The notes: generated by a model not told the origin, from the letters alone. Shown: positions 25,912-46,118, counted from the first letter of the stretch. The stretch is 46,118 nt of DNA from Syntrophobacteraceae bacterium (GCA_031292195.1 JARLHP010000150.1:1-46118), one strand, 5' to 3'. Program-made: numbers and translations.

Positions 25912-25912
25912 T

Positions 25913-27148: not shown

Positions 27149-27152
27149 TTGC

Positions 27153-28283: not shown

Positions 28284-28363
28284 TGTTCAATCCTCGAAAA
28301 TTACCTTCGCAAAAGTAATGCTCCATGGAATCATGGTTTTCGACAACTACGCAACTTGGAAAA

Positions 28364-29131: not shown

Positions 29132-29670
29132 CGGTTCCCTCTCGATCCCCTATTGGAAAAAATCGCCCCCTCAAACTCCAGGCCGTTATTCTATTGGGAT
29201 AGACCACCTTTGCCCACCCCGAAATTCCCAGGACTCCGGCGATTGAGAAACTGAACCGACTTAGGGCCGCCGGGGTAAGGAGGGCGGCGCCTGGAGACCT
29301 GTGAAACAGAAGCTACATTCCCGCTATAATGTAGCTTATGCCAAATTGCAGTGTCAACATGTTTTTGGATGTTCGGGTTTTGGGGGCCGCCGCGGTCTGG
29401 GCGATAGTGTTGTGGAAATTGCATTCACTTACCTTTTTTCCGTTTCTGGTTGCCGTTTCAGGTTTCCGTTTCTGGTTACCGCTTCTATTTGCCGCTTTGC
29501 AGCTATTTCCAGCATATCCTAGAGTTCACGTGCCGGGCAAGCGGCGGCAAATAAGAGCGAAATGGGGCTACAGGGATTTGATCGAAGGCTGGTTACCCGC
29601 GATGAGCGGTCGGGTGTTTTGGCCTTAGCGGGGGTCGTGAACGTAGAAGGGAAAAATAGGAAATTCCAAG
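29132..29670. other. Intergenic region between SDR and portal genes
   Basis: Open frames here are hydrophobic or low-complexity (for example 29338-29628) and lack family features. The stretch 29430-29490 contains degenerate copies of TTTCTGGTTnCCG, and a strong palindrome lies at 29310-29337. This region marks the junction between the metabolic operon and the phage module. Confidence 0.4.
29310..29337. repeat. 10-bp perfect inverted repeat
   Basis: AAGCTACATT (29310-29319) and AATGTAGCTT (29328-29337) flank an 8-base spacer CCCGCTAT. It could be an operator, an element end, or a small hairpin; no T-run follows, so a terminator is not favoured. Confidence 0.4.
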
Positions 29671-31398
29671 ATGGGACATTCGACGGAAAACATATTGGCA
29701 AACAGCGGTGGTCCGAAGGTGAGGCAGTTACGGGAGTATGTCGATCGCAGACTGGTCTCGCTCAGGGCGGATCGATGGAGTTGGTGGCAGCACTGGAGGC
29801 AGCTCAGCGATTTCATACTGCCGAGGCGGGGCAGATACTTGGCCTATCCAAACCAGGCGACGCGAGGCGATCCGTTGGGGTCGCGGATAATCAACGAGAC
29901 GCCAATCCTGGCGCACAGGACGCTTGCCGCGGGATTAATGGCCGGCTTGACAAGTCCCGCCAGGCCGTGGTTTCGGCTGTCCATCCGTGATTTCGACTCA
30001 AGCGACAACACGCCGGTTAAACTATGGCTCGATGAGGTCGGCAGACGGCTACAGGTTGTGCTGTCTCAAAGTAACGCCTACAACGCCCTTCATGTCATCT
30101 ACGAGGAGCTGGGGTGTTTCGGCACTGGCTGCATGCTGATCGAGGAGGATTTCGAAGATGTTATCCGGTGTCACACCCTTACCGCCGGAGAGTACTATAT
30201 TGCGAGTTCCTATAGGGATGAGATCGATACTCTCTACCGGGAGTACGTGCTCACCACGGGGCAGATAGTGGAGAGGTTCGGGATCGAGAATTGCAGCCCT
30301 CAAATAAAGTCTTTGTGGATGTCCGGGCAGCTCGATAAAGAGGTACGAATTGCCCAGGCGATAGAGCCCAACGACGAACGGGCCCCTCAGAGCCCCGGGC
30401 TTAAAGGCAGGAAATTCCGGTCGGTCATCTGGGAATGGGGGCAGAATCCGGACTTGGTGCTGGACCTTCGGGGATACTACGAGTTGCCTTTCGTGGCGCC
30501 AAGGTGGTCTGTGATCATGAATGACGCCTACGGGCGCGGACCGGGAATGGAGGCACTGGCAAGCAGCAGGATGCTGCAGCAGCTTGAAAAGCGCACGGCG
30601 CAGGCGATTGACAAGGTACTAAATCCGCCTATGGTTGCCGACGTTTCGATGAAAAACGAGCCGGCATCTCTTCTGCCCGGTGGCGTGACCTATGTGGCCA
30701 ACATGGCCCAAAGCGGCTTCAAGCCGGCCTACCAGGTTCCTCCGGACATTCGCGGGGCGCAACAGAAAATCAACGAGTGCGAGCAACGGATTAACAGGGC
30801 CTTTTTCGCCGATCTCTTCCTCATGATCTCTCAGCTTGATACGGTTCGAACCGCAACGGAGATCGTCGAAAGAAAGCAGGAAAAGATGCTGATGCTGGGG
30901 CCGTTTTTGGAAAGGTCCCAGTTCGAACTGATTAACCCGATGATCGAGCGAGTCTTTGCCATGATGCACCGTGCGAGGCTGATTCCGCCTGCCCCGCGTG
31001 AGATAGTCGGGTCCCATTTCGATATCGAGTGCATCTCAACCCTGGCTGATGCTCAGAAGAGTACGGCCACGACAGGAATCGAGCGGCTAATGGCCTTTAC
31101 GGGAAACCTGGCCGCTGCCTTCGCCGGACAGCCGAACAACCCGCTAGACAATATCAACGCCGACGAAGTGGTCAGGGAATATGCCAATCTCCTGGGGGTT
31201 ACACAAAGGTTGGTTGTGGCCCAGCAGCAAAGGGATGCGACGAGGAGAGCGAGACTGCAGCAGGTCAGGCAGGCGCAGGTCGCACAGATGGCGATGGCTG
31301 CTGCGCAGGGGGCGAAGACGCTTAGCCAGGCCGAGGTGGGTGGTGGCCAGAACGCGCTTCAAATGATGCTGGGTAATGCGGAGGTGGCGCCCCAATGA
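29671..31398 (+). CDS. Phage portal / head-to-tail connector protein
   Basis: A 575-residue podovirus-type portal (head-tail connecting protein family). WSWWQHWRQLSDFILPRRGRY near the start, RIINETPILAHRTLAAGLMAGLTSPARPWFRL, LHVIYEELGCFGTGCMLIEED and the middle NDAYGRGPGMEAL are characteristic. The C-terminal ~130 residues are Gln/Ala-rich, as in many portals. The ATG at 29671 has AGGAAA upstream. The portal sits at the capsid vertex and is docked by terminase. It is directly followed by a Bbp19-like gene with a 4-base overlap, so the phage module is intact at this point. Confidence 0.9.
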   Translation: MGHSTENILANSGGPKVRQLREYVDRRLVSLRADRWSWWQHWRQLSDFILPRRGRYLAYPNQATRGDPLGSRIINETPILAHRTLAAGLMAGLTSPARPWFRLSIRDFDSSDNTPVKLWLDEVGRRLQVVLSQSNAYNALHVIYEELGCFGTGCMLIEEDFEDVIRCHTLTAGEYYIASSYRDEIDTLYREYVLTTGQIVERFGIENCSPQIKSLWMSGQLDKEVRIAQAIEPNDERAPQSPGLKGRKFRSVIWEWGQNPDLVLDLRGYYELPFVAPRWSVIMNDAYGRGPGMEALASSRMLQQLEKRTAQAIDKVLNPPMVADVSMKNEPASLLPGGVTYVANMAQSGFKPAYQVPPDIRGAQQKINECEQRINRAFFADLFLMISQLDTVRTATEIVERKQEKMLMLGPFLERSQFELINPMIERVFAMMHRARLIPPAPREIVGSHFDIECISTLADAQKSTATTGIERLMAFTGNLAAAFAGQPNNPLDNINADEVVREYANLLGVTQRLVVAQQQRDATRRARLQQVRQAQVAQMAMAAAQGAKTLSQAEVGGGQNALQMMLGNAEVAPQ

Positions 31399-31733
31399 GC
31401 ATGAAGCAGGAGCCCTATATGGCCGGCGACCCCGAGCAGGTCAAAGGTCGCAAAGACAAGCAGAAGACCCGGGATCTGCAAAAAAAGGCGGCGTTGCGGG
31501 CCATCATGTCGGAGCCGGGTGGCAGAATGTGGATGTGGGACCTTCTCACTGCGTGCGGGGTCTACCACTCGTCGTTTTCGAGCGATGCCCTTTTTATGGC
31601 TTTCAATGAAGGCCGGCGGGATATAGGCAATCACCTGATAGCCGAGATAAACCGGCTGGACGGAGGACCTGAGCTTTATCGGCGGATGGCCTCCGAAATC
31701 GAGGGTCGGCGGGCGCCGGCGTCCGAGGGTTGA
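31395..31733 (+). CDS. Bbp19-like phage protein
   Basis: A 112-residue protein with the Bbp19-type pattern: RDLQKKAALRAIMSEPGGRMWMWDLLTACGVYH and FMAFNEGRRDIGNHLIAEINRL. The family is named from a Bordetella podovirus and adjoins portal genes in several phages. It overlaps the portal stop (ATGA). Its exact function is not established. Confidence 0.78.
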   Translation: MSMKQEPYMAGDPEQVKGRKDKQKTRDLQKKAALRAIMSEPGGRMWMWDLLTACGVYHSSFSSDALFMAFNEGRRDIGNHLIAEINRLDGGPELYRRMASEIEGRRAPASEG

Positions 31734-32273: not shown

Positions 32274-33686
32274 TCACATGACCATTACTTCGGCAACATT
32301 TGGAGAGAACTCAGGATCCATTATCGCCATCTGACTGCGGATATTAGACCGCAATGCAACCGCTGGCCTCAAACAGAATTCATAAAACTCCTCTGTGGTA
32401 ACTGAATGAACATCCGGAAATAGCAGCTTGAGATAACCGCAAGCAAGCCGCTGAATAGCTCGCGTATCTCTCAAATCACCGTCTGCAATCGTATGGTCTT
32501 TTACGAAAGCCATGTGGTCCTGGCGTGAGCGCAGGGAATACAGGACTTCGCCAAAATAGTCGGCGCGGAGAGCGAACGATTGACAGATCGAAGAGGATTC
32601 GATCCTGGGTAACTCCCAGCCCGGCAGTAGCCCATGGAACCTGTCAAGGAGTGCTGTCGCGCCTTGCCCTTTGAGCCATCCGGGTAATTCCTGAAAAAAA
32701 TTGACATGCTGAGGCAGACCATCTTTAATGGGAATATTGCCGAGAATTACAAAACCGGCATCGGCAGAACCATGAAAACCCATGACTCGAAATTCGCCGG
32801 ACTCAAGATACCCTTTAAGAGCTCCGACGATTTCTTCTTCGTCCTTAAGTCGGATCGTTTGAATCTCATCAAGAACAATGGTGTCATATCGTGAGATAAT
32901 GCCTGTTTGCTGCCGGTTCATATCGTAAAACAACTGAGCCCGGGTCACAACACCCCCGCTGATCAGCCAGGCGTGCCGAGACAGCTGACTGAAAATATAG
33001 GATTTTCCAGTCCCTTTCGGGGCGAGTTCCATGATGTTAATCCGTGGCTCGACAAGGGGGATCAAACGAGTCTGCAAAAGCATTTTTTGCCGGGGCGTAT
33101 ATTTCTCCTCCGCATACCCCATGCACCTTGTCAGAAGCACTTGCCATTCAGCTAGAGTGAACTCCTTGCGAATTGCTAAAAAATAGTCAAGATCAATGCT
33201 TGCAGCCTGCATGGGCTTGAAAGCCGTCATGACCACTTCAAAGTGATTCTCTTTTGCCTTCTGGGGCTTCCACATGAGGGTCGCGCTCCCCCATACGTTG
33301 CCATACAGCAGGAGAGGGTTCTCGTCCACGATGTTTTGGAGCACACGGCCGGTAATGTCAAGAGATGGTATCCTTAATTGTAGATGGCCCGTGGTCGGGT
33401 GGACTTTTACGCTGAAGGCGTCAAGAATTTTTAAACGATTCCCCTGGGTCAATTCATACATCAAGGATTCCTTCTGCTTCTTGTCCGGCAAATAACGAGC
33501 AATAAATTTCCTGATCCCATCGCCGTCAACCCCGCCTTCACTGGTGCGGTAGCGGCTAACCAACCAATCAAACACAAACGCCGGGATCACTCTGCCGGAA
33601 AGGCCGACACTTGCAGCAAGGCCCTTGTGAACACAGACATCGGGGAAAAATTCCTCGATTTTTCTATCTAGATTTTCTTTTTCCAT
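32274..33686 (-). CDS. brxL: BREX type 4 BrxL (short AAA+ form)
   Basis: A 470-residue AAA+ protein. Walker A is APKGTGKS (about 222-229), Walker B VLDEIQ (271-276), and the likely arginine-finger region LLDRFHGLLPGW (346-357). It looks like the short BrxL version (TIGR02688-like), ending at about the AAA+ lid, with no C-terminal Lon-type Ser/Lys protease domain visible. The start is taken at 33686, directly after the pglZ stop (TGAAATG); the longer frame overlaps pglZ. It is the last gene of the operon. In BREX, BrxL acts with the others in blocking phage DNA. Confidence 0.85.
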   Translation of the reverse strand: MEKENLDRKIEEFFPDVCVHKGLAASVGLSGRVIPAFVFDWLVSRYRTSEGGVDGDGIRKFIARYLPDKKQKESLMYELTQGNRLKILDAFSVKVHPTTGHLQLRIPSLDITGRVLQNIVDENPLLLYGNVWGSATLMWKPQKAKENHFEVVMTAFKPMQAASIDLDYFLAIRKEFTLAEWQVLLTRCMGYAEEKYTPRQKMLLQTRLIPLVEPRINIMELAPKGTGKSYIFSQLSRHAWLISGGVVTRAQLFYDMNRQQTGIISRYDTIVLDEIQTIRLKDEEEIVGALKGYLESGEFRVMGFHGSADAGFVILGNIPIKDGLPQHVNFFQELPGWLKGQGATALLDRFHGLLPGWELPRIESSSICQSFALRADYFGEVLYSLRSRQDHMAFVKDHTIADGDLRDTRAIQRLACGYLKLLFPDVHSVTTEEFYEFCLRPAVALRSNIRSQMAIMDPEFSPNVAEVMVM

Positions 33687-33687
33687 T

Positions 33688-36006
33688 TCAGAACTCAAAG
33701 TCATCACCAAATTCATCCACCATAGCGCCCCTGGTCTCAATCTTTAGCCCGACAGAGCTTTTTTCTTTGCCAAATCGGTGCCGCATGGTGAATGTCCCCT
33801 TCAGATCAATCAGAATTTCGCTGACGCCTGTGGCATCAAAGGTTGCCTCAAGGCAGCCAACCTGGTTCGGCAGGACCCGCACAGGGAGTGGGGTAACAAA
33901 TTCAATCCCTGGCAGGGAAATTTCTACTATGGTCAAAGCGTAATTATTGGGGTTGGAGAACGAGACCTTCACTCTGTTCTCTTTGCGCTTACGGAATATT
34001 TCACCGTCAATGGCAACACTCGGCTGGATGGCGGGCTCAGACTTTTGGAAAGAGAGCATGAACCAGGGCACAGCAACTTCTTGTGGAGTACAACCGCCAT
34101 GGGTAGCGCCTTTTGGCCTTTTACCAAAGCATGCATATCCCAAGGGGATGGCCATTTCTTCATGAAGGCCGAAAAGGCCGGGTTTCAAACGCCAGATGGA
34201 TTTTTCATCAACATGTTGGACTGATGAAGATTGGTCTATAACGGCACTGCGGGTTTTTCCTGTTTTTGAACCCTGCACATCCAGTTTGCCGATTTTTTGG
34301 GGCAATTCCGTATAGCCATGATCGCTACAGACACCGATGCAAAGATTGGCGCCGAGTTGCTCTTTGACCACTCGTGCGGCCTCAATAATTGCTTCGGCCT
34401 GTTTCCTGATATGGGAATTGTATTTTTCACGACGCGCATAAGGAGTCAATGACGTATGGAGGTATTCCCGGTCAAGCTGGTTATCCAGGTAGAGGTACAC
34501 TTTGGCGGGATTCTGCACCAGCTCGTAAAGCGTGGAGTCTTGATCGGTCGCCGATACCACTTCCGTCTCGACAAGACCGAATGAATCTTGCAGTAGTTTA
34601 CGGTAAAAGGCGGCGTCAGGACGCTCCGGTGGTAGCTGCGAATTCATCCACCCGCAGACCAGGGTTGGTTTGGCGATGAAAGTTTCTGTCGGCAGGAAAG
34701 CAAAGTAGGGCGCAATCCCGTTTTCCGGATAGGCGCCAGCCTGCTCCAGAATGGGGAGCAATACATCCTGCCCCCCAAGATAATCCAGGCCGTCAAATAC
34801 ATAAAGTAGGACGGGGCCGTCTTCCAACCGTGACTTTAATTCACCGATTTGGCGGTACGCCATCCCCGCTCCATCGATCAAAAGATTTGAATAATTCCTC
34901 TTCAGCCAGTTTTCAAACTGCTCGACAAACGGTTCGGTTTTCTCCGTCAGTTTGAGGGTAGCGCAGGAATCATAATAGGGAAGATACTCGTCCCGAAGCC
35001 ATTCTTGGACTATTTCAATTGAAACGGAATCAGGCAGAAAGGAAGGCTCCTTGACGGGCAACAGCCTTCGTGCCAAACAAACAGCTTCCGGGAAGCCAGC
35101 GAGTTGACAAATTCTTTGATAAATATCCCGTTCGAGGGGAATACCCTGGCGCAAAAGAGATTGCAGTTTTTTTAAAAGGAATATCCCCTCAGGTTCCAGT
35201 CTACCAGAAAGGAAAGACAAGGCCTGAAACGGCGACCGGCTCCATTCCTCATCGAGAAAGGCCTTGAGAAAAACGGCGGTTCCCTCCGGGATTGGAATTT
35301 CTAGGCCGGGAAATGACCGAAAGTTCTCTGGCAGCAAATGAAGCGAATTCCATTCATCAACGTGCTGAAACCAGCTTGAAACAATGCTTGAAGGGTATTC
35401 GCGCAACGCCTGTTCCCAGGCCAAAACCTTGGCTCGTTGAAACGGCGCATGGCCGAGCCAACGGAAGAATTCTGCTCTGCCGGAATCACTCATACCCCAC
35501 GCATTCAATCGCTCCATCAGCAGTTGGCGAGTCAAAGGGTGCAGCTTATTCTCATCACGGGTTGCAAGCCATCGGAGGATCTCTGGCAAGGACGCATCCT
35601 CAACCGGCTCCTCAACCTGCCAGGAATGGCCAAGCAAAACACGCAACAGCCATGACTCGGCCGACTCTTGTGACAAGATTTCCTCTTGATCGGCTTTTTC
35701 CAGCAACTTCAGTTCGACAATCCATTCTGGATGGTTTCTGAAAAGGCCTTTGATATCGGAACGATTAAGCCGTTTTGTCAAATCGCCCACAGGATCAAGG
35801 TGGATTACGGTACAGGAAAATCTCCTTGCCGGGGCATCAAACCAGTGGAAAAGAGCCGGATTCTTAACGACGATACACCCAATGCTTTCGTTCGCCTGGG
35901 TTTTCAGCAATTCGAGGGCTTTTTCGTACTGGCTCTCATCCTTGACGAGATAATCGCCAGCCTGGAGCGGATGAAGCCCGAACTTATCGCAGATGATCTT
36001 TTGCAT
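33688..36006 (-). CDS. pglZ: BREX PglZ
   Basis: A 772-residue protein of the alkaline-phosphatase superfamily, the defining BREX gene. The metal-site motifs are LLYVFDGLDYLGG (D405-G406), VCSDHGYTELPQ (SDHG 561-564) and the C-terminal GATHGGCTPQEVAVPWF (around 633-648, compare HGGxSPEE). The last ~120 residues form an immunoglobulin-like tail (NRVKVSFSNPNNYALTIVEI), as in longer PglZ forms. The start overlaps the brxC stop by one base (TGATG). The first metal motif is DGL rather than the commoner DAL-R, which is unusual but leaves the aspartate. Confidence 0.88.
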   Translation of the reverse strand: MQKIICDKFGLHPLQAGDYLVKDESQYEKALELLKTQANESIGCIVVKNPALFHWFDAPARRFSCTVIHLDPVGDLTKRLNRSDIKGLFRNHPEWIVELKLLEKADQEEILSQESAESWLLRVLLGHSWQVEEPVEDASLPEILRWLATRDENKLHPLTRQLLMERLNAWGMSDSGRAEFFRWLGHAPFQRAKVLAWEQALREYPSSIVSSWFQHVDEWNSLHLLPENFRSFPGLEIPIPEGTAVFLKAFLDEEWSRSPFQALSFLSGRLEPEGIFLLKKLQSLLRQGIPLERDIYQRICQLAGFPEAVCLARRLLPVKEPSFLPDSVSIEIVQEWLRDEYLPYYDSCATLKLTEKTEPFVEQFENWLKRNYSNLLIDGAGMAYRQIGELKSRLEDGPVLLYVFDGLDYLGGQDVLLPILEQAGAYPENGIAPYFAFLPTETFIAKPTLVCGWMNSQLPPERPDAAFYRKLLQDSFGLVETEVVSATDQDSTLYELVQNPAKVYLYLDNQLDREYLHTSLTPYARREKYNSHIRKQAEAIIEAARVVKEQLGANLCIGVCSDHGYTELPQKIGKLDVQGSKTGKTRSAVIDQSSSVQHVDEKSIWRLKPGLFGLHEEMAIPLGYACFGKRPKGATHGGCTPQEVAVPWFMLSFQKSEPAIQPSVAIDGEIFRKRKENRVKVSFSNPNNYALTIVEISLPGIEFVTPLPVRVLPNQVGCLEATFDATGVSEILIDLKGTFTMRHRFGKEKSSVGLKIETRGAMVDEFGDDFEF

Positions 36007-39000
36007 CAGGAACCCGTTCCGAAAAAATGTTTTTTCAGAAAATGATACAGAATCATCGTCTTTTCCTTTTCATCAAGACTTCTGCCGATTTGCTCTACAG
36101 TGGCGTCCAGCATGTTTGCCAAGGCGTGTCCGTTTGGGCTTAACTCTTCCACCACCTCAAAAACCCGCCTTTTGCTTTCCCCACTGGGGAAAGCAATGGT
36201 AAGGCCCACATGATCGGGCCTAATGGGATCAAGATCAGGTCCCGACATTGCCCCTGGCATGGCAGGAGGTTCAAAGCTTTCAATATATTTTTTGGCGGAA
36301 TCGAGCTTGGCGCTGAATTTGACCACCATCTCATCCGCCCAGGAAGTGACAGGCAGGCCGGTGAGTTTTTCGGCCAGTCGTATGAGTGAATTTTCGTCGA
36401 TGGCCTCCGTCTCGCGGCAGCAACCGACAAGCACGGCTGGGTCCCCGTGATGCATGAAGTTTTTTGTTTCATCCGGTAATGCATCGAACCATTTCCAAAC
36501 GGAACCAATCCCATCGGAGTCACCTTCAAAATTCTTCAAGCACTCTTCGATCACCTTCCGCCGTAATTTCGCCGGCGCTTCCTCGAACTCACCCTTGATC
36601 TCTTCAAACAGTCTTTCCACGCCGCCCTGTTTTACCTTCTCGCCAGCGTAGAAAACATGCACAAAAGCATCTCGGAGGAGAATTTTCTGCGTGTCCGGAT
36701 CTAATTCCGCAAGTGGCTTAAAAATGTAGTCGCGAAGCATACCCGCGTCGCCGGAAATATTTGCCGTCGATTGAGCATGCCTGGCAAGCCCCCGCCACCA
36801 GAGGCCAACAGACTTTCCAACCTTTTTCACTCGCTCAAGGGCAGGATCGGTGGGTGCGAGCATTACATCGAAAACTTTGGCCATCCCTGCCACCACCGCA
36901 TTCTGGTTGGAGCTGACGTTCACATACACCAGCTTATATTTATCAGGCGCGGCAAAGACCTTTTCCAACGTATCACTTTCAATTGTCGTGATCATTTCCA
37001 CCTGATTCGCCGAGCGCTGAAACTCAAATGAGATATTTCCCAGGGCCAGCTCATGATGGGCGACAGCGGCGAAAAAGATGGGCATAACGCGGCATTTCAA
37101 TCCATAAGGCGACTTCCGCAACTGGGTCACGAGCTTTTTCATCTCCACCGGTCGCTGCCGCGCCTTATTGAGAAAATCGTCGATCAAAACCCAAAGCTGA
37201 TGCGCGCCTGGGTATTCATCGTTGCCGGGCGGTTGGATGACAATGTCACCGGCTTGGTCCTTCCGCAGCAATCCGTTACTCTTTAATAGCAGAGTAATGA
37301 CATGCTGCGGAGCTGCAGCCGTTTCTCTCCATAGGGTTTCAGCCGCATCATTGCCTGCCAGTTTCAAAACGATGTCACGGCATTCCTTGCGATACCCCCA
37401 GTTTCCGCCGAAATCGTCCTGAGCCAGCTTCTGATCACCGATATGTGGACAGAAGGGGAAAGTATCCAGCATGATAGCCGTCGCTAGTTTTTTCAATTGC
37501 CGGCTGTTCTGCGCCTCATGTGCCTGCCCCTTCCAATAGTATTCAAGCGCCTGCTTCTCGGGGGTTACGATGTCGCTTATGGCGTCCGTGAGCTGGGTGT
37601 TTTTGTCCTGCTCCCACACCTGCCATTCCTCATGAAGTTCTCCTCCTTCGGCATAGAGACTGGCCTCGTTTCCTTTCAGATATGCCAGCGCCTGATGTTC
37701 CAAAAGTAGTCTGGCGATCTTGGCCGGCTGCCTAGGGATGGCAAGAACGACCTGCTGGTACTGTTTCCCGGCCAGCGTTGTCTCGGCGATTTTCCTCGCC
37801 TCTTCTATTTCGCCGGAGGTTTCGCATAAAAGCACCAGCAAGAGCCCATCAACAAAACTTCCATTGCCAAGATTCTGGGTAATAATATGAAGCCGTTCCC
37901 GAATCTGGTACATGCTAACAGGTTCCACAGTCAGTTGCCGGTAAACGCCAAAATCGTCACCGTATCCGGTAGCTTCAAGTGAACTGGTCACTGGCAGATT
38001 CGGCCAAAGGGACTTGAGGTAAGGGAGGGACTTCTGGCCGAGCTTTTCCGGGGTATCCTCGATAATTTTCCGGACCTTCTCCATGAGGGTTTCAGTGGAA
38101 CTGCTCACTGCCGGACGATACGAGCCGTCCGATGGCAAACGTATCAGAATATGGTTCTCGTTTTTCAGGTCCGAATGGCGGGCAAGCTCCGTGAGATAAT
38201 GCTCCCGGCTATCAGCAGCTACATCCAGCGAATACAGAAGAATATCCTCTGTCATCTTGAACCGGGCGGGATTGAATACCCGAAAAACAGACACGGCTTT
38301 GAGTGTTCGCAGGCCGAAATTGTCGTCCGGTGTTAGCCGCGCCTTGAGTTGTTCAAAATCCCGGAATATGGAATAGGTTCGTTCCTGCTGCTTGATATCC
38401 CTGGAAAAGTAATCCCACAATCTATCAACAGTAAACATGGGTGGAGCGAGCCTGGATGGGTCCAGCAAAGCCTTGTCCAGGAATCGTCTGAAACTTCCGG
38501 GCTCGTCCTCGCAAAGGCAGGTAAAAAGGGTCCTGTTGTTCTGTGCGACCTTCTCCGAAACCGCCGGCAGACTGTACACCGCCATGGGATGAAGAGGATA
38601 GGCGCCCATCACCACGGTCGCCTTTAACTCATCGCGGGTGAATCCGGTAAAATAATTCAGACGGGCGGTTTCCTGGACCAAGGCATCAAAATATCCCGCA
38701 AATGACGTTGTCAGCTCCTGCCAGCCGGGAGCCTGTCCGTCCGCGACAATGACTCCGGCGATCAACTGGAAGGTCTCATCATCTGTGCTCTTGAGGATAT
38801 ACTGTTTAAAGCGGCCTTCAATCTTCCGCAGGTCATCCTCCAGATTCTGGTGGCTGAAGGATGATGCGCTCCGTGAAATATCGTGGTATTCATTCAGTGA
38901 TCGGTGGCAGAACAGGTAGAGGTGCAACTGGTTCTCGGCGCTGGCGTTGCAACATTCCGCGAAATTCTGAAGGGTGAGCCCCTCCTTGCCGGTCGGATCT

Positions 39001-39803
39001 TTGACAACTTCCTCCATCTTATGGCCGAACTCGTCCCATAACACCACGATTCCGCTGTAGCCATGGTCCTTCCGTAGTTCCCTGTTCACATCTTCATAAA
39101 AAGTTGCCGGGTCGATTCTGGATGTATATTGAAACTGCGAGCCACTGGTTGCTGCCGGGTAAACTTCTCGGAACAGGTCAAAGGCATCCTTTTGATATTC
39201 ACGCAACCGGGTTTTCAACTCATCTATGGTTTTGCTCCTCTCCGCGGCTTCATGTTTCAGAATCTCGAAACTTGCCGGATATTCCTTCTCAAGCTCTTCA
39301 ATGCGTTTGATGGCGCTGTCAAATGCGGTTGGTGGCAATATATTCTCAAGCTTTGCTTCTAGTAGCGCACGGCGCAAGCCCATCATCAAGCTGTCTCCGA
39401 TATGCCCTTCGTCTCCGTAGAGGCCGACTGCCAGATAAGGTGCGGGAACAGCCTGGCGGTGCTGCCTCAAAACCGCTCTTGTATCCGGGTCAAGTTTCTC
39501 GGAAACTGTTTGCAATTCAGGTGTTTCCAACGGCCGCAAGAAGAGATTGAGCAAAACGAGGGCAAGGTGGCTTTTTCCGGTGCCGTACGTACCCATGACG
39601 ATTCTTGAACGCAGGTCGGGTGTGGTCGGGTGCAGTTTCTTGGCGAAATCGAGAATGATTTCCCTCGCCACCTCGGTTGGGATATAGCCCGCCACCTTCT
39701 CCAGATTGTGCCGCTCTTTTCGCAGGTTGACGGCAGCTTTAAAGCCGGGGGAAATCCGGATAAACTCTTTCACTTCCTGTGTCATTTGCTGCTCCACTGT
39801 CAT
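36006..39803 (-). CDS. brxC: BREX BrxC/PglY-type ATPase (DUF6079-like)
   Basis: A 1265-residue P-loop ATPase. Walker A is GTYGTGKS (71-78), then a Walker-B-like VVLWDEFGHKME (253-264) and a long helical, charged body, as in BrxC/PglY. The final stretch carries VEELSPNGHALANMLDATVEQIGRSLDEKEKT. The size matches type 4 BrxC. It is translationally coupled at both ends (ATGA with the small upstream gene, TGATG with pglZ). The N-terminal AAA+ part likely powers DNA recognition or assembly of the complex. Confidence 0.86.
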   Translation of the reverse strand: MTVEQQMTQEVKEFIRISPGFKAAVNLRKERHNLEKVAGYIPTEVAREIILDFAKKLHPTTPDLRSRIVMGTYGTGKSHLALVLLNLFLRPLETPELQTVSEKLDPDTRAVLRQHRQAVPAPYLAVGLYGDEGHIGDSLMMGLRRALLEAKLENILPPTAFDSAIKRIEELEKEYPASFEILKHEAAERSKTIDELKTRLREYQKDAFDLFREVYPAATSGSQFQYTSRIDPATFYEDVNRELRKDHGYSGIVVLWDEFGHKMEEVVKDPTGKEGLTLQNFAECCNASAENQLHLYLFCHRSLNEYHDISRSASSFSHQNLEDDLRKIEGRFKQYILKSTDDETFQLIAGVIVADGQAPGWQELTTSFAGYFDALVQETARLNYFTGFTRDELKATVVMGAYPLHPMAVYSLPAVSEKVAQNNRTLFTCLCEDEPGSFRRFLDKALLDPSRLAPPMFTVDRLWDYFSRDIKQQERTYSIFRDFEQLKARLTPDDNFGLRTLKAVSVFRVFNPARFKMTEDILLYSLDVAADSREHYLTELARHSDLKNENHILIRLPSDGSYRPAVSSSTETLMEKVRKIIEDTPEKLGQKSLPYLKSLWPNLPVTSSLEATGYGDDFGVYRQLTVEPVSMYQIRERLHIITQNLGNGSFVDGLLLVLLCETSGEIEEARKIAETTLAGKQYQQVVLAIPRQPAKIARLLLEHQALAYLKGNEASLYAEGGELHEEWQVWEQDKNTQLTDAISDIVTPEKQALEYYWKGQAHEAQNSRQLKKLATAIMLDTFPFCPHIGDQKLAQDDFGGNWGYRKECRDIVLKLAGNDAAETLWRETAAAPQHVITLLLKSNGLLRKDQAGDIVIQPPGNDEYPGAHQLWVLIDDFLNKARQRPVEMKKLVTQLRKSPYGLKCRVMPIFFAAVAHHELALGNISFEFQRSANQVEMITTIESDTLEKVFAAPDKYKLVYVNVSSNQNAVVAGMAKVFDVMLAPTDPALERVKKVGKSVGLWWRGLARHAQSTANISGDAGMLRDYIFKPLAELDPDTQKILLRDAFVHVFYAGEKVKQGGVERLFEEIKGEFEEAPAKLRRKVIEECLKNFEGDSDGIGSVWKWFDALPDETKNFMHHGDPAVLVGCCRETEAIDENSLIRLAEKLTGLPVTSWADEMVVKFSAKLDSAKKYIESFEPPAMPGAMSGPDLDPIRPDHVGLTIAFPSGESKRRVFEVVEELSPNGHALANMLDATVEQIGRSLDEKEKTMILYHFLKKHFFGTGS

Positions 39804-40225
39804 GGGGTCCAGATAGTTCCTCTACTGTTTTCAGCGATTCCCTTGAGATCCGTCAAGTCTTCCCGGCAGTAGAGCAACAGCACCACGCCATGAGTTACCT
39901 CCATTCGAAGCATATAGCGAAGAAAAGCATAACGTTCCTCTTCCGGCCACTTGCTGTAAAATGGCTCCAGGCTGCTAACCAGGAGAGGCTTTGCAGAACA
40001 CCCCTCCCTAATCTCTTCCTGGATCTTCCATCTGGTGAAAAACGATTCCAACTCCCCTTGGTATCGGGTGGCAAAATCTGTCCGTTCCGCGCCGATCACT
40101 TCGGTCACCTCTTTAATGAGTTCCTCCGGGAAACGATCCTGCCGCGCCGGGGTGATAAGCATCACGCGGTAGCGGCTGTTAACGCATCGGCGCCATTTGT
40201 CAAGAAAGGCATCAAGGAGTATCAT
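39800..40225 (-). CDS. Small BREX-associated protein of unknown function
   Basis: A 141-residue protein that I do not recognise with certainty. It has an alpha/beta look: a strand RYRVMLITPARQDR, helices, then a strand EVTHGVVLLLYCRED. It sits exactly between DUF4007 and brxC, where some BREX loci carry a BrxB-like gene, so a BrxB-equivalent role is possible. The ATG at 40225 is chosen because AAGGTGA precedes it; a GTG at 40231 is in frame. It overlaps brxC in an ATGA. Confidence 0.6.
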   Translation of the reverse strand: MILLDAFLDKWRRCVNSRYRVMLITPARQDRFPEELIKEVTEVIGAERTDFATRYQGELESFFTRWKIQEEIREGCSAKPLLVSSLEPFYSKWPEEERYAFLRYMLRMEVTHGVVLLLYCREDLTDLKGIAENSRGTIWTP

Positions 40226-40232
40226 CGTCACC

Positions 40233-41147
40233 TTATTCTGAAAAGAGATTGTCTTGAGAAGGTTTCTTTTCCAGTTCTCTGACCTCGATCATGCCGGCTG
40301 CCAAGGCATCCAAGGGCGATTCGCCGTCAAGCTCGCGGTAATGAGCGCTCACCAGCGCCAGTGGAGAAACATCCATGATCGAGACCGAATTGAGCCCGGC
40401 GGTGTGGCTTATCCACGCCACGCGCTTTTCGTACCTGTCACCGATCTCAACCAGCAATTGATCGAGACCCTGGCGATCCAGCCTGAGTATCCTGCCGATT
40501 CCCCAGGGCTCTATAAGCTTCTCGAAATAGACGGACTGCCGTTTATGCTGCCGAGCCCAATCGAGTAGGGCATAAGCGGCAATAGCTGGAGGCGGCTCGC
40601 GAAAGCCGGTGGGCTGCCGGAGATATCTGCCGTCTTCGTGGGTTAAGAAAAAGCCAAAATTCCCGCCCAAGCGGGTGCCGTCAAAGACCTGTTTAAATGG
40701 GGAAAAAATGAGCTTGTCAAAGGTGCTGTCGGTCATGGGTTTTTCGTGGTCCTGATTCCACCAATCGCGTAAATGTTTCTCCAGCATGGCCCGGTCAAAG
40801 GTATCCTGGGCAAACTCATTGAAATAAACTGCGTAAAACCAAGCCGGGCTGTCTTCTCGGGCTAGATTATTGTGCAATGCCCACCAGATGCCATCATCAT
40901 CCATGTCCGGATCGTGCCGGGCGATCATTTGGCCAAGGGGGGTGAGTGAAAAATGCTGTTTTTCCTTCTGGAGAATCCCTGCCGACTCGGCCCAGACCTT
41001 TGCCGCTCCCACCTTCAGCTTGCCGATGCGCAGGACGGTTTGTGCTTTTTCTACCGCGCTTGGCAAAAACAAATCGGGATATTCTGGAATCTTCTTAATG
41101 AGCAATCGGAACCAGGTTTCTTCGAAACCGAATTTAAATTCAGCCAT
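40233..41147 (-). CDS. DUF4007 family protein
   Basis: A 304-residue protein of the DUF4007 family: FGFEETWFRLLIKKIPEY at the start (the family's F.ETF..R..WLKK theme), KLKVGAAKVWAESAGIL, FSLTPLGQMI, DDGIWWALHNNLARED, and a C-terminal winged-helix-like DVSPLALVSAHYREL. DUF4007 is repeatedly found beside PAPS-reductase-like proteins in DNA-sulfur and BREX type 4 loci, and here it directly follows brxP with no gap. It is likely a DNA-binding or complex-forming partner of BrxP. No enzyme motif is visible. Confidence 0.85.
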   Translation of the reverse strand: MAEFKFGFEETWFRLLIKKIPEYPDLFLPSAVEKAQTVLRIGKLKVGAAKVWAESAGILQKEKQHFSLTPLGQMIARHDPDMDDDGIWWALHNNLAREDSPAWFYAVYFNEFAQDTFDRAMLEKHLRDWWNQDHEKPMTDSTFDKLIFSPFKQVFDGTRLGGNFGFFLTHEDGRYLRQPTGFREPPPAIAAYALLDWARQHKRQSVYFEKLIEPWGIGRILRLDRQGLDQLLVEIGDRYEKRVAWISHTAGLNSVSIMDVSPLALVSAHYRELDGESPLDALAAGMIEVRELEKKPSQDNLFSE

Positions 41148-42737
41148 CTATTTTTTCCCATTAAAATGCAGAGACTTTACCGCAAGGCAGTCATGCGATA
41201 CACAATGCAAACAGCTAACGCATTTTTCATTGATAATTGAATAGTTGCCAGAGGAACATAAGGCGTGCTGAGAGCAAACTGCCTCACAAGAACCACAATA
41301 GATGCATGATTGTAGTTTCCTTAACTGCTTTTCAATACGTTGTTGGAAAAGACGCGCATTCTTCTTTAAAAGATAATTTATACGAATTGCGCTGTCTTCA
41401 AATCCAATTTCCACACTCGCCAGCACCTCACCCAGATCTTTATCATGAATTAAAAACGTTTCAAAATAGCCATTAGCTTTTACGTGAGTTTGCGGCCCGA
41501 GTGGCCGCAAAAAATGTCGGACTTTCTTTATTTCTCCACCTAATAGCTGGTATGAAACGGCCGTATCTGATAGGAGACATGGTGCTGATTCAATAGTAGC
41601 CTTATAGTGGTCAAAACCACGACCACCTGCTCTAGTACGCCATCCTTTGGAAACAAAATCGTGTGGATTTTGATGGTTAATCCGCATGGCGTGCTGTACT
41701 AAAAATTGAGCCCAACGATTATCTTGAGATGGTAGCCAATAATTTATCATTCGTCCAGACCATTCACTATTGAATGGGCAATAAAGGCAGCCAACTCTCC
41801 TGAACCCTTTCCTGTAAGCAGTATTGAATGTAATATCATGATAAAGCAAGTATATCCAAACTGCTAAATCCGACCATTCTAAGATTGGCCTTGCCAAGAC
41901 TTCTCTCGCAATTTTATGCTGGGTTGTAATTCGTGGGTAAAGTGCTCTACGTGAGGACTCTGCTTTCCGGATACCATCAAAGGTTAAGACCCCGTCAAAG
42001 GGGCTCATACTGTCAATAAGCTTTGACAGCGGGTTTGTCTTATGGGTTGAACAGCACCACCGTAGAATGCGACTGGGTGGACCGATCGATTCTGCGGTTT
42101 TAAAGAAGTCCAGAGGCGACCGGCTGGAGATGAAAGGCGTCAGTGGATGCTCGGTTTGAAACCGCTGGAGGTATTTATAGGTGTCCGGCAACTCAATGGT
42201 TGTGTCGGCGAAAATGTGCAGAATGTCACTCCGGCCGAGCGCATTCATCACCAAGTGCGAAGCAACGGTCGAATCCTTACCGCCGGAAAAGGAGACGAGG
42301 ATAGGGCGCCCCCTAAACTGGGAAACCGCTTCCCTGATAAAACTCTCCGCCTCAAATTGTAATCGTTCAATGTAGTTTTTGTTCGCCTCCCGCAACCGCT
42401 CCAGGGCATCTTTGCGGGTTCTTTTCGCAATAGCCTGGTGGCCTACCCTACCCGGTGCGACGTCAGCAGGGGTGGCGGTCAACTTAAAGAGCACTTTGCC
42501 CTGTGAATAATAGGTGTAATTGACCGGATTTACCCACATTTCCAACTCGCGCAGCCATGGGTGAAGATCCTGAGCAACGTGTTGGCGCAGGTATCTTATT
42601 TCAGTTTTAAAGACGGGAACCACAGTTGCCGATGCGATATTACGTCCTTTTGCGCCGCAAGCGCCGCATAGCTCTCCAAGCAGGGGAACCTGGCAGGAAT
42701 CGCACCAGTATGTTCTTGCGGATGCTGGTTTGCTCAT
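41148..42737 (-). CDS. brxP: BrxP, PAPS-reductase-like protein with zinc ribbon and ferredoxin-like cluster
   Basis: A 529-residue protein. N-terminal CxxC pairs (C12/C15 and C24/C27) form a zinc ribbon. The PP-loop SFSGGKDST (149-157) binds nucleotide. WCCSTHKTNPL (227-237) and CLYCPF (317-322) are the PAPS-reductase/DndC-type cysteines. The C-terminal CxxCxxCxxxC (C478-C488) and CxxCxxCxxxxC (C506-C517) should hold one or two Fe-S clusters. BrxP replaces the PglX methyltransferase in type 4 BREX. By analogy with DndC it may modify DNA with sulfur, but this is inference. It overlaps the upstream gene by four bases (ATGA) and abuts DUF4007. Confidence 0.88.
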   Translation of the reverse strand: MSKPASARTYWCDSCQVPLLGELCGACGAKGRNIASATVVPVFKTEIRYLRQHVAQDLHPWLRELEMWVNPVNYTYYSQGKVLFKLTATPADVAPGRVGHQAIAKRTRKDALERLREANKNYIERLQFEAESFIREAVSQFRGRPILVSFSGGKDSTVASHLVMNALGRSDILHIFADTTIELPDTYKYLQRFQTEHPLTPFISSRSPLDFFKTAESIGPPSRILRWCCSTHKTNPLSKLIDSMSPFDGVLTFDGIRKAESSRRALYPRITTQHKIAREVLARPILEWSDLAVWIYLLYHDITFNTAYRKGFRRVGCLYCPFNSEWSGRMINYWLPSQDNRWAQFLVQHAMRINHQNPHDFVSKGWRTRAGGRGFDHYKATIESAPCLLSDTAVSYQLLGGEIKKVRHFLRPLGPQTHVKANGYFETFLIHDKDLGEVLASVEIGFEDSAIRINYLLKKNARLFQQRIEKQLRKLQSCIYCGSCEAVCSQHALCSSGNYSIINEKCVSCLHCVSHDCLAVKSLHFNGKK

Positions 42738-45061
42738 AGCGCGATTTTGCCCCGGCCTTTCTTCTTTATTGAGATGGAGATCGTGCTTTCTCTGTCAGCT
42801 TTCAAATTTTCTTCTTCCGGGAGGTCAAGCGCGATCTGGCACTGCTCTCTGGTCTGCACATCCACCATTGCGTCTGTCAATTTATGGAGAGGAAGCTGCG
42901 GAGAGATCATTCCAAAATAGTCATCGATACCTTTCAAGAGAATGATCAGCAACAGACTGTGGGCTGCGGGATTTACCAGCAAGGCAATAAGACTCTCTTG
43001 GAGATAAAGACTTGAAAACTTTTGACTCCAGAAACCAGAATTTAAGAAACTTTTCATTGGTTCTTTAATTGCTTTGTTCCTGATCTCATCGGCGTTCAGT
43101 TCGCCTATGCGGCGCATGAGAACATTTTCAGCCTCCACCACCTCGCCCCTTTTATGGCGGGCAAGATAAAAATTGAAAAACCTCTCATTTAGGATCGGCA
43201 GATAATAGGCCCCTTTGTCATTCATACCTCGGATAAAGACACGGGCGAGCACAAGCTTGTACGAGCAATTGTTGTTGGTGGTGACAAACCCCGCCAGGTT
43301 CGCCAGAGCATCGGGCAACAGTTTGATTAATTCAGACATCGACCGCTGTCGCCACCTTTCCGGTCGATCATAAAAACCCTCGCCAATATTGACAAAACGA
43401 CTGCCCCAGGTATGCAATGCCGCTGAAATATTACCTCCGGAATATTCTCCGGCAAGGGTATTGATAATCTCACTCCGCCGCAGCGGCAGATCATGGGTAT
43501 CCAGCAGATCTTCGATGGCCATGGAAACGGAACGGTATCTGCCAGCGCCCCACGCCTTCAGACCATAGGCGCCGCGCTGAATGATCTCGACGGAGTCATA
43601 ACGCATCATCGCCGAATGCACATTGTTGTCGGAAATCCCCCGGTGCCTGATGTTTTCCTTGCGGATAGTAGCGGCAATTTCGCTGAAATGCATGGGTTTG
43701 CCTTTATTTTCGAGAACATGAATGATCAGTTCCTCGATCTTCTCCCCATGGCGGATCAGCCATCGGTCTTGTGGAAAAACCAGATCACCGTGGAGGCGGT
43801 ATTCTCCGCCGGAATCGTCCACCATCTTCTCAATGAATGCTTTGTGAAATTTCTGCGAAGGGGTGGCCTGGCATTGGCTTTGGCAAAGCCGGGCGAGCCT
43901 GTCCCCGACAACAAGCAGGTGATAACTCTCATTCGCCTCGAAATCGAGCGCCGGTAAAAACTCCCCTGGCGTTTCACAAGCGAGACAGGGACAAGGAACC
44001 GTAACCAGATCTCCAGAGACGACAAATTTTTTCTCTTCCTCCACAACGGCGAGAAGTTCGGTCAGGGGGACAAGGTTTGGCAAACTGGGCCAGCCATATT
44101 CTGTTCGCAAGCTCTCGGCCAAGTCTTGGAGGCTTATGATGCCGCCCCCTTCGCAGATCTTTCTGGCAGCCAGTTCCCAGAAATCGGCTAATAGCTCGCG
44201 ATGCGCCTTGACTCGCAAGAGAGCATTACCCCGCTTGAGAATCTGTCGCACCCCTTCCCTTGTCATGCCAAATCGTTCCCCCAACTCTTCAAGGGTCGGC
44301 ATGGCACCGGGATAGTCCAGCCTGCTGCAAACTATTGCCTGGTTCCTCTCACTCTTCAGGCAATGCCGCACAAAACTCGATACCAATTCTTCATAACTGG
44401 AATAATCAATGTCATGCTGGATCTCACTGCTTTTCCGGGCGCAGGCTGCGGCTTGTGTGCCACCCCTCAACACAAAGGAACGGATGATATCCTGGACTTC
44501 TTTCAAACATTTCCGTCCAAAATTCTTCTGTGAGAGGAGTTCGCCGGAAGGGAAAAGCATCACTTCACCGATAGTTTTCAGTCCGAGTCGTTTCAGTATA
44601 TTTGACGCCCGCATGGAAAACACAAAGTCCTGCCAGCGGGTAGCGCCATGAAACTCCGGGTGCAAGTCATTCACCGCAAAATCAACAAGCTGTCGTGAAC
44701 TAAAAATCGGCAGGTACGTGATATTTTCTTCTGATGGCTGCAACTTCAACACATCCTCGGCCGACATGGGGCGGTTCCGGACTTCTGGTCTTGGTTGAGA
44801 TACCTCCCCCATCTGAACGATTATGCCATCGCGAAATTCCATGAGTTCCCTGACGGTTTTCCGGCCACTATTTCTGAGATCGCCAAAGACATTCTCGTCG
44901 CACGACAGGAACTCGTCACGTGAAGAAAAATTCTTTAAAAGCACATTCGTGGCCCGCACCGACAACCCTGCCGACGATATGAACTTTTGCCAGTCGCCCG
45001 GATCATTTTGCGGCGTGAGGTCGGTCGCCGTAACCTGGGAGTCAATAGTCAGCCGTGGCAC
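42734..45061 (-). CDS. BREX-island DNA-binding protein with duplicated alpha-CTD-like, sigma-4-like and HARE-like modules
   Basis: A 775-residue protein. Residues ~24-80 (FISSAGLSVRATNVLLKNF to NSGRKTVRELMEF) and ~144-196 (FVFSMRASNILKRLGLKT, then NFGRKCLKEVQDII) both look like the helix-hairpin C-terminal domain of RNA polymerase alpha. Residues ~250-285 (TLEELGERFGMTREGVRQILKRG) match the HTH of sigma region 4. Residues ~440-505 (EELIIHVLENKGKPMHFSEIAATI) resemble a HARE-type winged helix, and ~510-570 another winged helix. No catalytic motif is evident. The start is taken at the GTG at 45061 (AGAGGG upstream), 19 bases after the nuclease-like gene; the longer frame to 45208 overlaps that gene. 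Neither transcription control nor DNA surveillance can be ruled out. Confidence 0.7.
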   Translation of the reverse strand: MPRLTIDSQVTATDLTPQNDPGDWQKFISSAGLSVRATNVLLKNFSSRDEFLSCDENVFGDLRNSGRKTVRELMEFRDGIIVQMGEVSQPRPEVRNRPMSAEDVLKLQPSEENITYLPIFSSRQLVDFAVNDLHPEFHGATRWQDFVFSMRASNILKRLGLKTIGEVMLFPSGELLSQKNFGRKCLKEVQDIIRSFVLRGGTQAAACARKSSEIQHDIDYSSYEELVSSFVRHCLKSERNQAIVCSRLDYPGAMPTLEELGERFGMTREGVRQILKRGNALLRVKAHRELLADFWELAARKICEGGGIISLQDLAESLRTEYGWPSLPNLVPLTELLAVVEEEKKFVVSGDLVTVPCPCLACETPGEFLPALDFEANESYHLLVVGDRLARLCQSQCQATPSQKFHKAFIEKMVDDSGGEYRLHGDLVFPQDRWLIRHGEKIEELIIHVLENKGKPMHFSEIAATIRKENIRHRGISDNNVHSAMMRYDSVEIIQRGAYGLKAWGAGRYRSVSMAIEDLLDTHDLPLRRSEIINTLAGEYSGGNISAALHTWGSRFVNIGEGFYDRPERWRQRSMSELIKLLPDALANLAGFVTTNNNCSYKLVLARVFIRGMNDKGAYYLPILNERFFNFYLARHKRGEVVEAENVLMRRIGELNADEIRNKAIKEPMKSFLNSGFWSQKFSSLYLQESLIALLVNPAAHSLLLIILLKGIDDYFGMISPQLPLHKLTDAMVDVQTREQCQIALDLPEEENLKADRESTISISIKKKGRGKIAL

Positions 45062-45080
45062 AGATGCCCTCTTTTTTCCA

Positions 45081-46109
45081 TTACAGGTGTCCCAGCAGCT
45101 TGGCGATTTGCTCCGGATCGGGAAGCTGGCCTTGCAGATCGGCCGGCAGGCTTGAGAACATCCGGTACCGCGACACGCCGATAGGGTTATTCGATTCCCG
45201 CAGGGCATACTCGACGATAGTTCTTTTCTTTGTCTTGCAAAGGATTATCCCGATAGAAGGATTTTCGCCCTCTTCCCTGGCCAGATCATCCAGCACTGCA
45301 AGATAGAATTGCATCTTGCCGACATATTCCGGTTGAAACTCGCCAACTATTAATTCCAGCGCCACCAGGGCGCGCAAACGCCTGTGGTAAAGCAAGAGGT
45401 CGATAAAGAACTCCCGCCCCTCGACCTCCAGGCGGTATTGACTTCCCACGAATGCGAAGAGGCCGCCCATCTCGCGCAGGAAATGTTCGATTCGCCCGAT
45501 GAGTCCCCGCTCCAACTCTCGCTCGCTATGTTCCTGGTTCATCTCCAGGAAATCGAAGGTGTATTCGTCCTTGACCGCCAGCTTGGCGTGGTTGCTGGCT
45601 TCTGCCGAAACGGTCCGGTCAAAAGTGGACTGATTGAGGAGGGTCTTTTCGTAGGTCTGGTTCTCGATCTGGTGGACAAGGACGTTCTTCGTCCAGCCGA
45701 ATTTCCGCGCCATCCGGATGTAGAATTCGCGTTCCAGGTCATCCTTGCACTTCTCAAGAATGAGCAGATTATGGGTCCATCCAATTTCTGCAACCAATGG
45801 CTGCAGTTTTTCATTAGATTGATATGTGCGGTAAAAATCCCGCATGTTCCAAAGATTACGGGCAGAAAACCCTTTGATGCCAGGGATCTCAGTTTGCAGG
45901 TCCTTGGCCGGGTTTTCTACGACCGCCTTGCCCCAAGATGTTTCCCGCTGTCGCTCGACGATCATCCGGCCAATGTCCCAATACAAGGCGATGAGCTCTT
46001 TGTTAACCGCTTTGAACGCCTCATATTGCGCCTTCCGGATGCGGTTTTTTATCTCGCTCAATAAGATGGGGTAGCTATCAGGAAGCAAGCCGTTCATGCG
46101 GTTAACCAT
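45081..46109 (-). CDS. YhcG/DUF1016 family PDDEXK nuclease-like protein
   Basis: A 342-residue protein of the DUF1016/YhcG family. The N-terminal winged-helix part has LYWDIGRMIVERQRETSWGKAVVENPAKDL, then GFSARNLWNMRDFYRTY and IGWTHNLLILEKC. The C-terminal PDDEXK part has FIDLLLYHRRLRALVALELIVGEFQPEYVGKMQFYL and NPSIGIILCKTKKRTIVEYAL. The usual ELK of the active site reads ELI here, so the catalytic lysine may be lost. It is the first gene of the operon visible in the window, with its ATG nine bases from the edge, so the promoter is outside. The other end is 19 bases before the alpha-CTD-like gene. Confidence 0.85.
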   Translation of the reverse strand: MVNRMNGLLPDSYPILLSEIKNRIRKAQYEAFKAVNKELIALYWDIGRMIVERQRETSWGKAVVENPAKDLQTEIPGIKGFSARNLWNMRDFYRTYQSNEKLQPLVAEIGWTHNLLILEKCKDDLEREFYIRMARKFGWTKNVLVHQIENQTYEKTLLNQSTFDRTVSAEASNHAKLAVKDEYTFDFLEMNQEHSERELERGLIGRIEHFLREMGGLFAFVGSQYRLEVEGREFFIDLLLYHRRLRALVALELIVGEFQPEYVGKMQFYLAVLDDLAREEGENPSIGIILCKTKKRTIVEYALRESNNPIGVSRYRMFSSLPADLQGQLPDPEQIAKLLGHL

Positions 46110-46118
46110 CTCGAAAGT

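What the first reader, a model, noticed from the sequence alone, without database searches (positions are those of the whole stretch)
42734..45061. Defence-island protein built from RNA polymerase-like DNA-binding parts
Two alpha-CTD-like modules (ASNILKRLGLKT and NFGRKCLKEVQDII are close to the RNAP alpha consensus), a sigma region-4-like HTH (TREGVRQI) and a HARE-like winged helix occur in one protein of a BREX type 4 operon. I know of no BREX component described with this make-up, though I cannot check. It could recruit or block host or phage RNA polymerase, regulate the operon, or read modified DNA; HARE-type domains have been proposed to link chromatin or restriction to modified DNA. It is translationally coupled to brxP (overlap TATGA), which points to a shared role.
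Basis: partly seen in the sequence, partly recalled or inferred. Interest (0 to 1): 0.85.

Follow-up and report, generated by a model that had tools for sequence, protein, structure and literature searches.

The report
Polymerase-like DNA-binding subunit of BREX variant
The first gene of this phage-defence operon makes a large protein strung together from pieces that RNA polymerase normally uses to grip promoters; it is a real, conserved and apparently undescribed part of one branch of the BREX type 4 defence systems, probably the part that grips DNA for the defence machine.

Summary
The gene is on the minus strand (GTG 45061 to stop 42734, 775 aa). It carries two RNAP alpha-CTDs (Pfam 7e-16), a sigma-70 region 4 (1e-6), a HARE-type winged helix (1e-5, just above the cut-off), a conserved Cys cluster and a conserved basic tail. 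It lacks sigma region 2 and the alpha N-terminal domain, so it is neither a sigma factor nor RpoA. Five new orthologues (42-62% identity) keep the three domain types, with DNA-contact residues largely invariant. Wherever the contig continues (4/4), the next gene is brxP. Three loci show the same 7-gene order: this gene, brxP, DUF4007, small protein, SspC-type brxC, pglZ, brxL. Ten canonical BrxP loci (28-37% identical BrxP) lack it. Distant relatives head a BREX with a methyltransferase instead of BrxP, and two Pbe operons. So it marks a BREX4 branch but does not track phosphorothioation. The nearest described BREX component is PglW (type 2), which has an alpha-CTD plus winged helices. Best reading: a DNA-gripping targeting subunit of the defence complex. 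An operon regulator and a promoter-mimic blocker of phage transcription remain possible. Structure prediction failed; nothing was tested at the bench.

The parts
42734..45061 (-). gene of the alpha-CTD / sigma4 / HARE protein, 775 aa, GTG start, stop at 42734
   Evidence: ortholog alignment A3
44834..44989 (-). alpha-CTD 1 (aa 25-76)
   Evidence: Pfam PF03118, 20.2 bits, E=5e-4 on its own, below the family cut-off of 23.8; R36, N39, G66, E72 (= E. coli R265, N268, G296, E302) invariant in 6/6 orthologues
44462..44659 (-). alpha-CTD 2 (aa 135-200)
   Evidence: Pfam PF03118 3.7e-12; 19/46 residues identical to the genome's own RpoA C-terminal domain; R151, G182, E188 invariant
44192..44404 (-). 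sigma-70 region 4-like domain (aa 220-290)
   Evidence: Pfam PF04545 1e-6, profile vs PDB sigma factors 1e-10; recognition helix R268 E269 R272 Q273 invariant
44006..44191 (-). presumed winged helix (aa 291-352, GGGIISL..)
   Evidence: conservation in A2/A3; no Pfam hit; fold is inference
43862..44005 (-). Cys cluster, C359-x2-C362 ... C393-x3-C397, probably a zinc site
   Evidence: invariant in 6/6 orthologues; zinc is inference
43544..43747 (-). HARE-type winged helix (aa 439-506)
   Evidence: Pfam PF05066 1e-5 to 1e-6; full-length match in the distant relative L047 (1.1e-3)
43346..43543 (-). second winged-helix-like segment (aa 507-572), the most conserved part
   Evidence: 26 of 66 columns invariant; no Pfam hit; fold is inference
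42917..43345 (-). C-terminal domain of unknown fold (aa 573-715)
   Evidence: 42-73% identity to orthologues; no Pfam hit
42737..42778 (-). conserved basic C-terminal tail SISIKKKGRGKIAL
   Evidence: kept in window, L110, L111, L113 after a variable acidic linker
41148..42737 (-). brxP (PAPS-reductase-like, 4Fe-4S-type C terminus)
   Evidence: PADLOC BrxP 2e-83, Pfam PAPS_reduct 3e-32
40233..41147 (-). DUF4007 protein (SspB/BrxA-like)
   Evidence: Pfam 4e-24, PADLOC SspB 6e-23
39800..40231 (-). small protein, 143 aa, at the place of a BrxB/BrxF-like iSTAND
   Evidence: conserved in L110 and L111; no family hit; iSTAND is inference from the L047 counterpart (AAA hits)
36006..39803 (-). SspC-type BrxC ATPase
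   Evidence: PADLOC SspC 7e-81, BrxC 2e-22
33688..36006 (-). divergent PglZ
   Evidence: NCBIfam PglZ_4 5e-10, far below its cut-off; PADLOC PglZ 3e-7
32274..33740 (-). brxL
   Evidence: TIGR02688 3e-122, over cut-off
45081..46109 (-). YhcG/DUF1016 nuclease gene just upstream (not conserved at this place)
   Evidence: Pfam 2e-60 and 3e-48; absent upstream of the orthologues L110 and L111

Best explanation
A dedicated DNA-gripping subunit of a BREX type 4-like defence complex. Shown by sequence: it strings two alpha-CTDs, a sigma-region-4 helix-turn-helix and a HARE winged helix on one chain, and is encoded first in, and translationally coupled to, the modification and restriction genes of one BREX4 branch. 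Inferred: it clamps duplex DNA at several points (minor groove by the alpha-CTDs, a major-groove motif by sigma4, further contacts by the winged helices) and, through its C-terminal domain and conserved basic tail, docks the DNA onto BrxP/DUF4007/BrxC, so that host DNA is modified and unmodified phage DNA is engaged. It would be the counterpart of the alpha-CTD/winged-helix half of PglW in BREX type 2, here as a separate protein.
For: Close orthologues directly precede brxP in 4/4 readable cases, with three identical 7-gene operons; 0/10 canonical BrxP loci carry it (Fisher p=0.001 if treated as independent). Frames overlap or abut the next gene in window, L110, L111, L113 and also in L044, L045, L047, typical of stoichiometric partners. 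DNA-contact positions are enriched among invariant residues (alpha-CTD1 5/6, p=0.002; sigma4 4/4, p=0.005). The PglW profile matches the alpha-CTD-to-winged-helix stretch in one collinear match (8.6e-10) and also its two halves separately in the same order (2.6e-4 and 0.067). Several DNA-binding modules in chains of 568 to about 1300 aa, far larger than a usual operon regulator. No 9-mer is shared by three or more upstream regions, so no sign of a common operator.
Against: No structure (two single-sequence predictions failed, pLDDT 35 and 45) and no binding data. It is the first gene, where regulators such as BrxR also sit. Canonical type 4 BREX works without it. alpha-CTD2 keeps only part of the DNA-contact set across orthologues (3/6, p=0.10), alpha-CTD1 alone is below Pfam's cut-off, and the distant relative in L047 has no recognisable alpha-CTD. 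The PglW match on the sigma4/winged-helix half alone is weak.
Confidence: 0.5

Rival explanations
1. It is the transcriptional regulator of its own operon: it binds the operon promoter through alpha-CTD/sigma4 and activates or represses the defence genes.
For: First gene of the defence operon in window, L110, L111, L047, L044 and L045; made of domains that read promoters; canonical BREX4 often has a small HTH-like regulator (PMC12839542) that was not seen here.
Against: Very large, several DNA-binding modules, translationally coupled to the effector genes; no shared sequence motif among seven upstream regions; in the window only 19 bases separate it from yhcG, and no promoter of its own could be examined.
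Confidence: 0.2
2. A promoter mimic: without being RNA polymerase it reads UP-element and -35 DNA and so competes with RNA polymerase at strong phage promoters, or loads the defence complex there.
For: Both halves of upstream promoter recognition are joined on one chain; the sigma4 residues that contact -35 DNA (R584, E585, R588, Q589 equivalents) and the alpha-CTD1 R265/N268/G296/E302 equivalents are invariant in six orthologues; a constant, not diversified, recognition helix suggests a universal target.
Against: Family members may use the same folds for general DNA binding; the alpha-CTD surface that touches sigma4 (E261) is not kept by eye; no direct evidence.
Confidence: 0.15
3. A reader of modified DNA: the HARE domain detects phosphorothioate or other marks and gates restriction.
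For: HARE-type domains have been proposed to recognise modified DNA (PMC10853773); the operon has a sulfur-inserting BrxP homologue.
Against: The module persists with a PglX/DrmMI-like methyltransferase (L047) and in Pbe operons with a radical SAM protein, so it does not follow one mark; the HARE match is marginal and partial in the window protein.
Confidence: 0.1

Closest known systems
PglW, BREX type 2 kinase (NF033442)
   Same: alpha-CTD followed by HTH/winged-helix modules inside a BREX component; collinear profile match 8.6e-10 over 183 aa (PMC12839542)
   Different: no NERD nuclease and no kinase domains here; score 37 bits against a cut-off of 990; type 2 not type 4 context; no second alpha-CTD or HARE domain is described for PglW in the paper
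MzaA, sigma-like protein of the MZA defence system (NF041931)
   Same: sigma-70 region 4 in a defence operon (1.3e-5)
   Different: matches only the sigma4 segment; 24 bits against a cut-off of 800
Canonical BREX type 4 (BrxP, DUF4007, BrxC, PglZ, BrxL)
   Same: same gene kinds in the operon
   Different: BrxC is SspC-like, PglZ is below the type 4 model's cut-off, BrxP 28-37% identical, and canonical loci lack this gene
Pbe (phosphorothioate-blocked DNA exclusion) operons L044 and L045
   Same: distant homologue of the same protein heads the operon (E 2e-21, 3e-19)
   Different: other effectors (PbeA, PbeC), a radical SAM protein, longer chain
RNA polymerase alpha subunit and sigma-70
   Same: source of the alpha-CTD and region 4 domains
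   Different: no alpha N-terminal domain, no sigma regions 1-2

Membership tests
RNAP alpha C-terminal domain (PF03118) | score over Pfam cut-off | tested here: met
   58 bits vs 23.8 for the whole protein; 6/6 orthologues match; the first repeat alone is below the cut-off
RNAP alpha C-terminal domain (PF03118) | DNA-contact residues R265, N268, G296, K298, E302 | tested here: met
   present in both repeats of the window protein; R, G and E invariant in both repeats of six orthologues, N only in repeat 1, K298 varies in one orthologue of each
RNA polymerase alpha subunit (RpoA) | N-terminal assembly domain | tested here: not met
   no such Pfam match; the genome's own rpoA is elsewhere, contig C143
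Sigma-70 region 4 (PF04545) | score over Pfam cut-off, -35 contact residues | tested here: met
   28.5 bits vs 24.1; R, E, R, Q invariant
Sigma-70 factor | region 2 for -10 binding and core RNAP binding | tested here: not met
   no Sigma70_r2 in any member
HARE-HTH (PF05066) | score over Pfam cut-off across the domain | tested here: inconclusive
   26.3 vs 25.9 bits, only positions 5-36 of 71; all six orthologues match at E<=1
BREX type 4 | BrxP (PAPS reductase), DUF4007, BrxL | tested here: met
BREX type 4 | type 4 PglZ model (NF033445) | tested here: not met
   38.7 bits vs cut-off 140
BREX type 4 | type 4 BrxC | tested here: inconclusive
   best PADLOC match is SspC (7e-81) rather than BrxC (2e-22); only weak match to BrxC of canonical loci
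BREX type 4 | DNA phosphorothioation | not testable with these tools
   needs mass spectrometry
PglW | NERD and kinase domains, score over NCBIfam cut-off | tested here: not met
   37 vs 990 bits, only the alpha-CTD to winged-helix part aligns
MzaA | score over NCBIfam cut-off | tested here: not met
   24 vs 800 bits

The most novel reading that the evidence does not exclude
A defence protein that recognises promoters as RNA polymerase does (UP element by alpha-CTDs, -35 by sigma4) and uses phage promoters as the landing site for a BREX complex, so that transcription start sites become the place where phage DNA is caught or silenced.
Probability: 0.15. Interest if true: 0.9.

Novelty: new variant of a known kind. 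Interest (0 to 1): 0.6.

Why it matters
It defines a branch of BREX type 4 by a core subunit that the one detailed 2026 survey read here (PMC12839542) does not list for type 4, and shows that related sigma4/HARE chains, mostly with alpha-CTDs, recur at the head of three kinds of defence operon (BREX4-like, methyltransferase BREX, Pbe). How BREX complexes find and hold target DNA is open; a separable, conserved DNA-binding subunit with predicted contact residues makes that testable by simple point mutations. If the promoter-mimic reading is right, it would be a new way to tell phage from host.

Tried and rejected
Plasmid, phage and IMG/VR collections: no relative of the window protein; a profile search of IMG/VR gave only phage sigma factors. 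The genome-contig scan gave only a housekeeping sigma factor. A search for PglW in the phylum to compare domain by domain found only an NERD-kinase protein without alpha-CTD. A common operator in upstream regions: none. A diversity-generating retroelement acting on the Lcl_C domain of the L111 orthologue: no template repeat in that draft genome. Idea 'sigma factor' rejected: no region 2. Idea 'general BREX4 part' rejected: 0/10 canonical loci.

Full report
What is there. The feature is a minus-strand gene, GTG at 45061 (GAGGG site upstream) to a stop at 42734, 775 residues; its end overlaps the start of brxP. Pfam gives two alpha-CTDs (7e-16 together), sigma-70 region 4 (1e-6) and HARE-HTH (1e-5, barely over the cut-off). 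Fragment scans confirm each piece alone, although the first alpha-CTD on its own falls below the Pfam cut-off (20.2 vs 23.8 bits). Regions 1-2 of sigma and the alpha N-terminal domain are absent, so the protein cannot be a sigma factor or RpoA. A public relative (AP024153.1, L047) is annotated 'RpoD' but also lacks region 2.

Orthologues. A single-sequence search of 395 genomes of the phylum gave two distant homologues, L044 and L045. A profile of the sigma4-to-HARE core (A2) found no further full-length member there; the many other hits listed are to the region 4 part only, and those inspected were sigma factors. In 213 genomes of the order of G398 it found five more: L109-L113. These five are 42-62% identical to the window protein, and alpha-CTD, sigma4 and HARE are found in all six. 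The number of alpha-CTDs varies: two in the window, three in L112 by eye.

Residues. In alpha-CTD1 the equivalents of E. coli R265, N268, G296 and E302 are invariant and S299 is T throughout; in alpha-CTD2 R265, G296 and E302 are. In sigma4 the equivalents of R584, E585, R588 and Q589 are invariant. Four Cys (359, 362, 393, 397) are invariant. Contact positions are enriched among invariant positions for alpha-CTD1 (p=0.0016) and sigma4 (p=0.005) but not clearly for alpha-CTD2 (p=0.10). The E. coli numbering was mapped by eye from my own knowledge. The HARE and following winged-helix segment are the most conserved parts; linkers vary.

Context. Window, L110 and L111 have the identical order: this gene, brxP, DUF4007, small protein, SspC-type brxC, pglZ, brxL; L113 shows this gene then brxP before the contig ends; L109 and L112 end inside the gene. 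A BrxP search in 194 genomes splits into two groups: 64-74% identity (G513 and G481, both with this gene) and 28-37% (canonical; none of those examined has it); G567 holds only a stop-broken BrxP remnant. With the five loci, 0 of 10 canonical loci have the gene; in one of them (L064) the contig ends just upstream of brxP, but that genome (G405) has no full-length family hit anywhere. The tenfold absence and fourfold presence share ancestry, so the Fisher p of 0.001 overstates independence. Distant relatives: L047, a BREX with a PglX/DrmMI-like methyltransferase in place of BrxP but DUF4007, BrxC, PglZ and BrxL kept, whose head protein has sigma4 and a HARE-like match but no recognisable alpha-CTD; L044 and L045, Pbe operons (PbeA 5e-222, PbeC 5e-174, PbeD 2e-5 in L045). 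So the module follows defence operons, not one DNA mark.

Relation to the known. PMC12839542 describes PglW of type 2 BREX with an alpha-CTD followed by three winged helices and an iSTAND domain, and lists no such protein for type 4. The PglW model matches the window protein collinearly from alpha-CTD2 through sigma4 into the next winged helix (8.6e-10). The window operon has a separate small protein in the place where an iSTAND is expected; its identity as iSTAND is inference. I therefore read the protein as a free-standing counterpart of PglW's DNA-binding half.

Mechanism. Shown: domain content, conserved contact residues, operon membership, branch specificity. Inferred: binding of duplex DNA at several points and delivery of that DNA to the BREX complex. 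A regulator cannot be excluded, since the gene is first in the operon; the lack of any shared upstream motif and the tight coupling speak mildly against it. The promoter-mimic model is the boldest reading that the data allow.

Limits. No reliable structure; one phylum plus one plasmid sampled; literature limited to open-access papers held; no experiment.

Noticed in passing
L044 11726-13117, L045 8940-10382: The two Pbe-like operons end with a radical SAM protein with a weak B12-binding match (Pfam 3.4e-6 / 1.2e-6 for radical SAM, just under the cut-off); no dnd modification genes in the short contigs. Possibly another DNA-modifying enzyme paired with Pbe.
   Followed up: partly
L111 1905-2400: The orthologue in G481 carries an N-terminal Lcl_C (DUF1566) domain (5e-32) of the kind diversified by retroelements; no template repeat was found in that draft genome.
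   Followed up: partly
window 45061-46118: L109 and L110 share an N-terminal extension (about 65-90 aa, ..KIFSASKYT..) that the window protein lacks; a YhcG/DUF1016 nuclease gene ends 19 bases before its start, so the 5' end may have been replaced. The contig ends 9 bases beyond the YhcG start codon.
   Followed up: no
AP024153.1 (L047) 26-1732: Public annotation calls the sigma4/HARE protein 'RNA polymerase sigma factor RpoD' though region 2 is absent: likely misannotation.
   Followed up: yes
L047 1733-14383: BREX variant on a plasmid with a PglX/DrmMI/type IIG-like methyltransferase combined with DUF4007, SspC-like BrxC, PglZ and BrxL.
   Followed up: partly
L123 (G567:C98) 6795-7181: Stop-broken remnant of the branch-type BrxP without the neighbouring operon genes.
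   Followed up: partly
L110 2286-3788: A Schlafen AlbA_2 / HATPase / wHTH protein (7.8e-21) lies just downstream of brxL in G513, a combination known as a backup effector near BREX (PMC12839542).
   Followed up: no
window 25129-28283: Three genes in a row resembling a 2-hydroxyacyl-CoA dehydratase/benzoyl-CoA reductase-type set (activator and two subunits), judged by eye from the translations.
   Followed up: no
window 23307-31733: Two ORFs (511 aa minus, 575 aa plus) look by eye like a phage terminase large subunit and a phage portal protein, far apart and on opposite strands.
   Followed up: no
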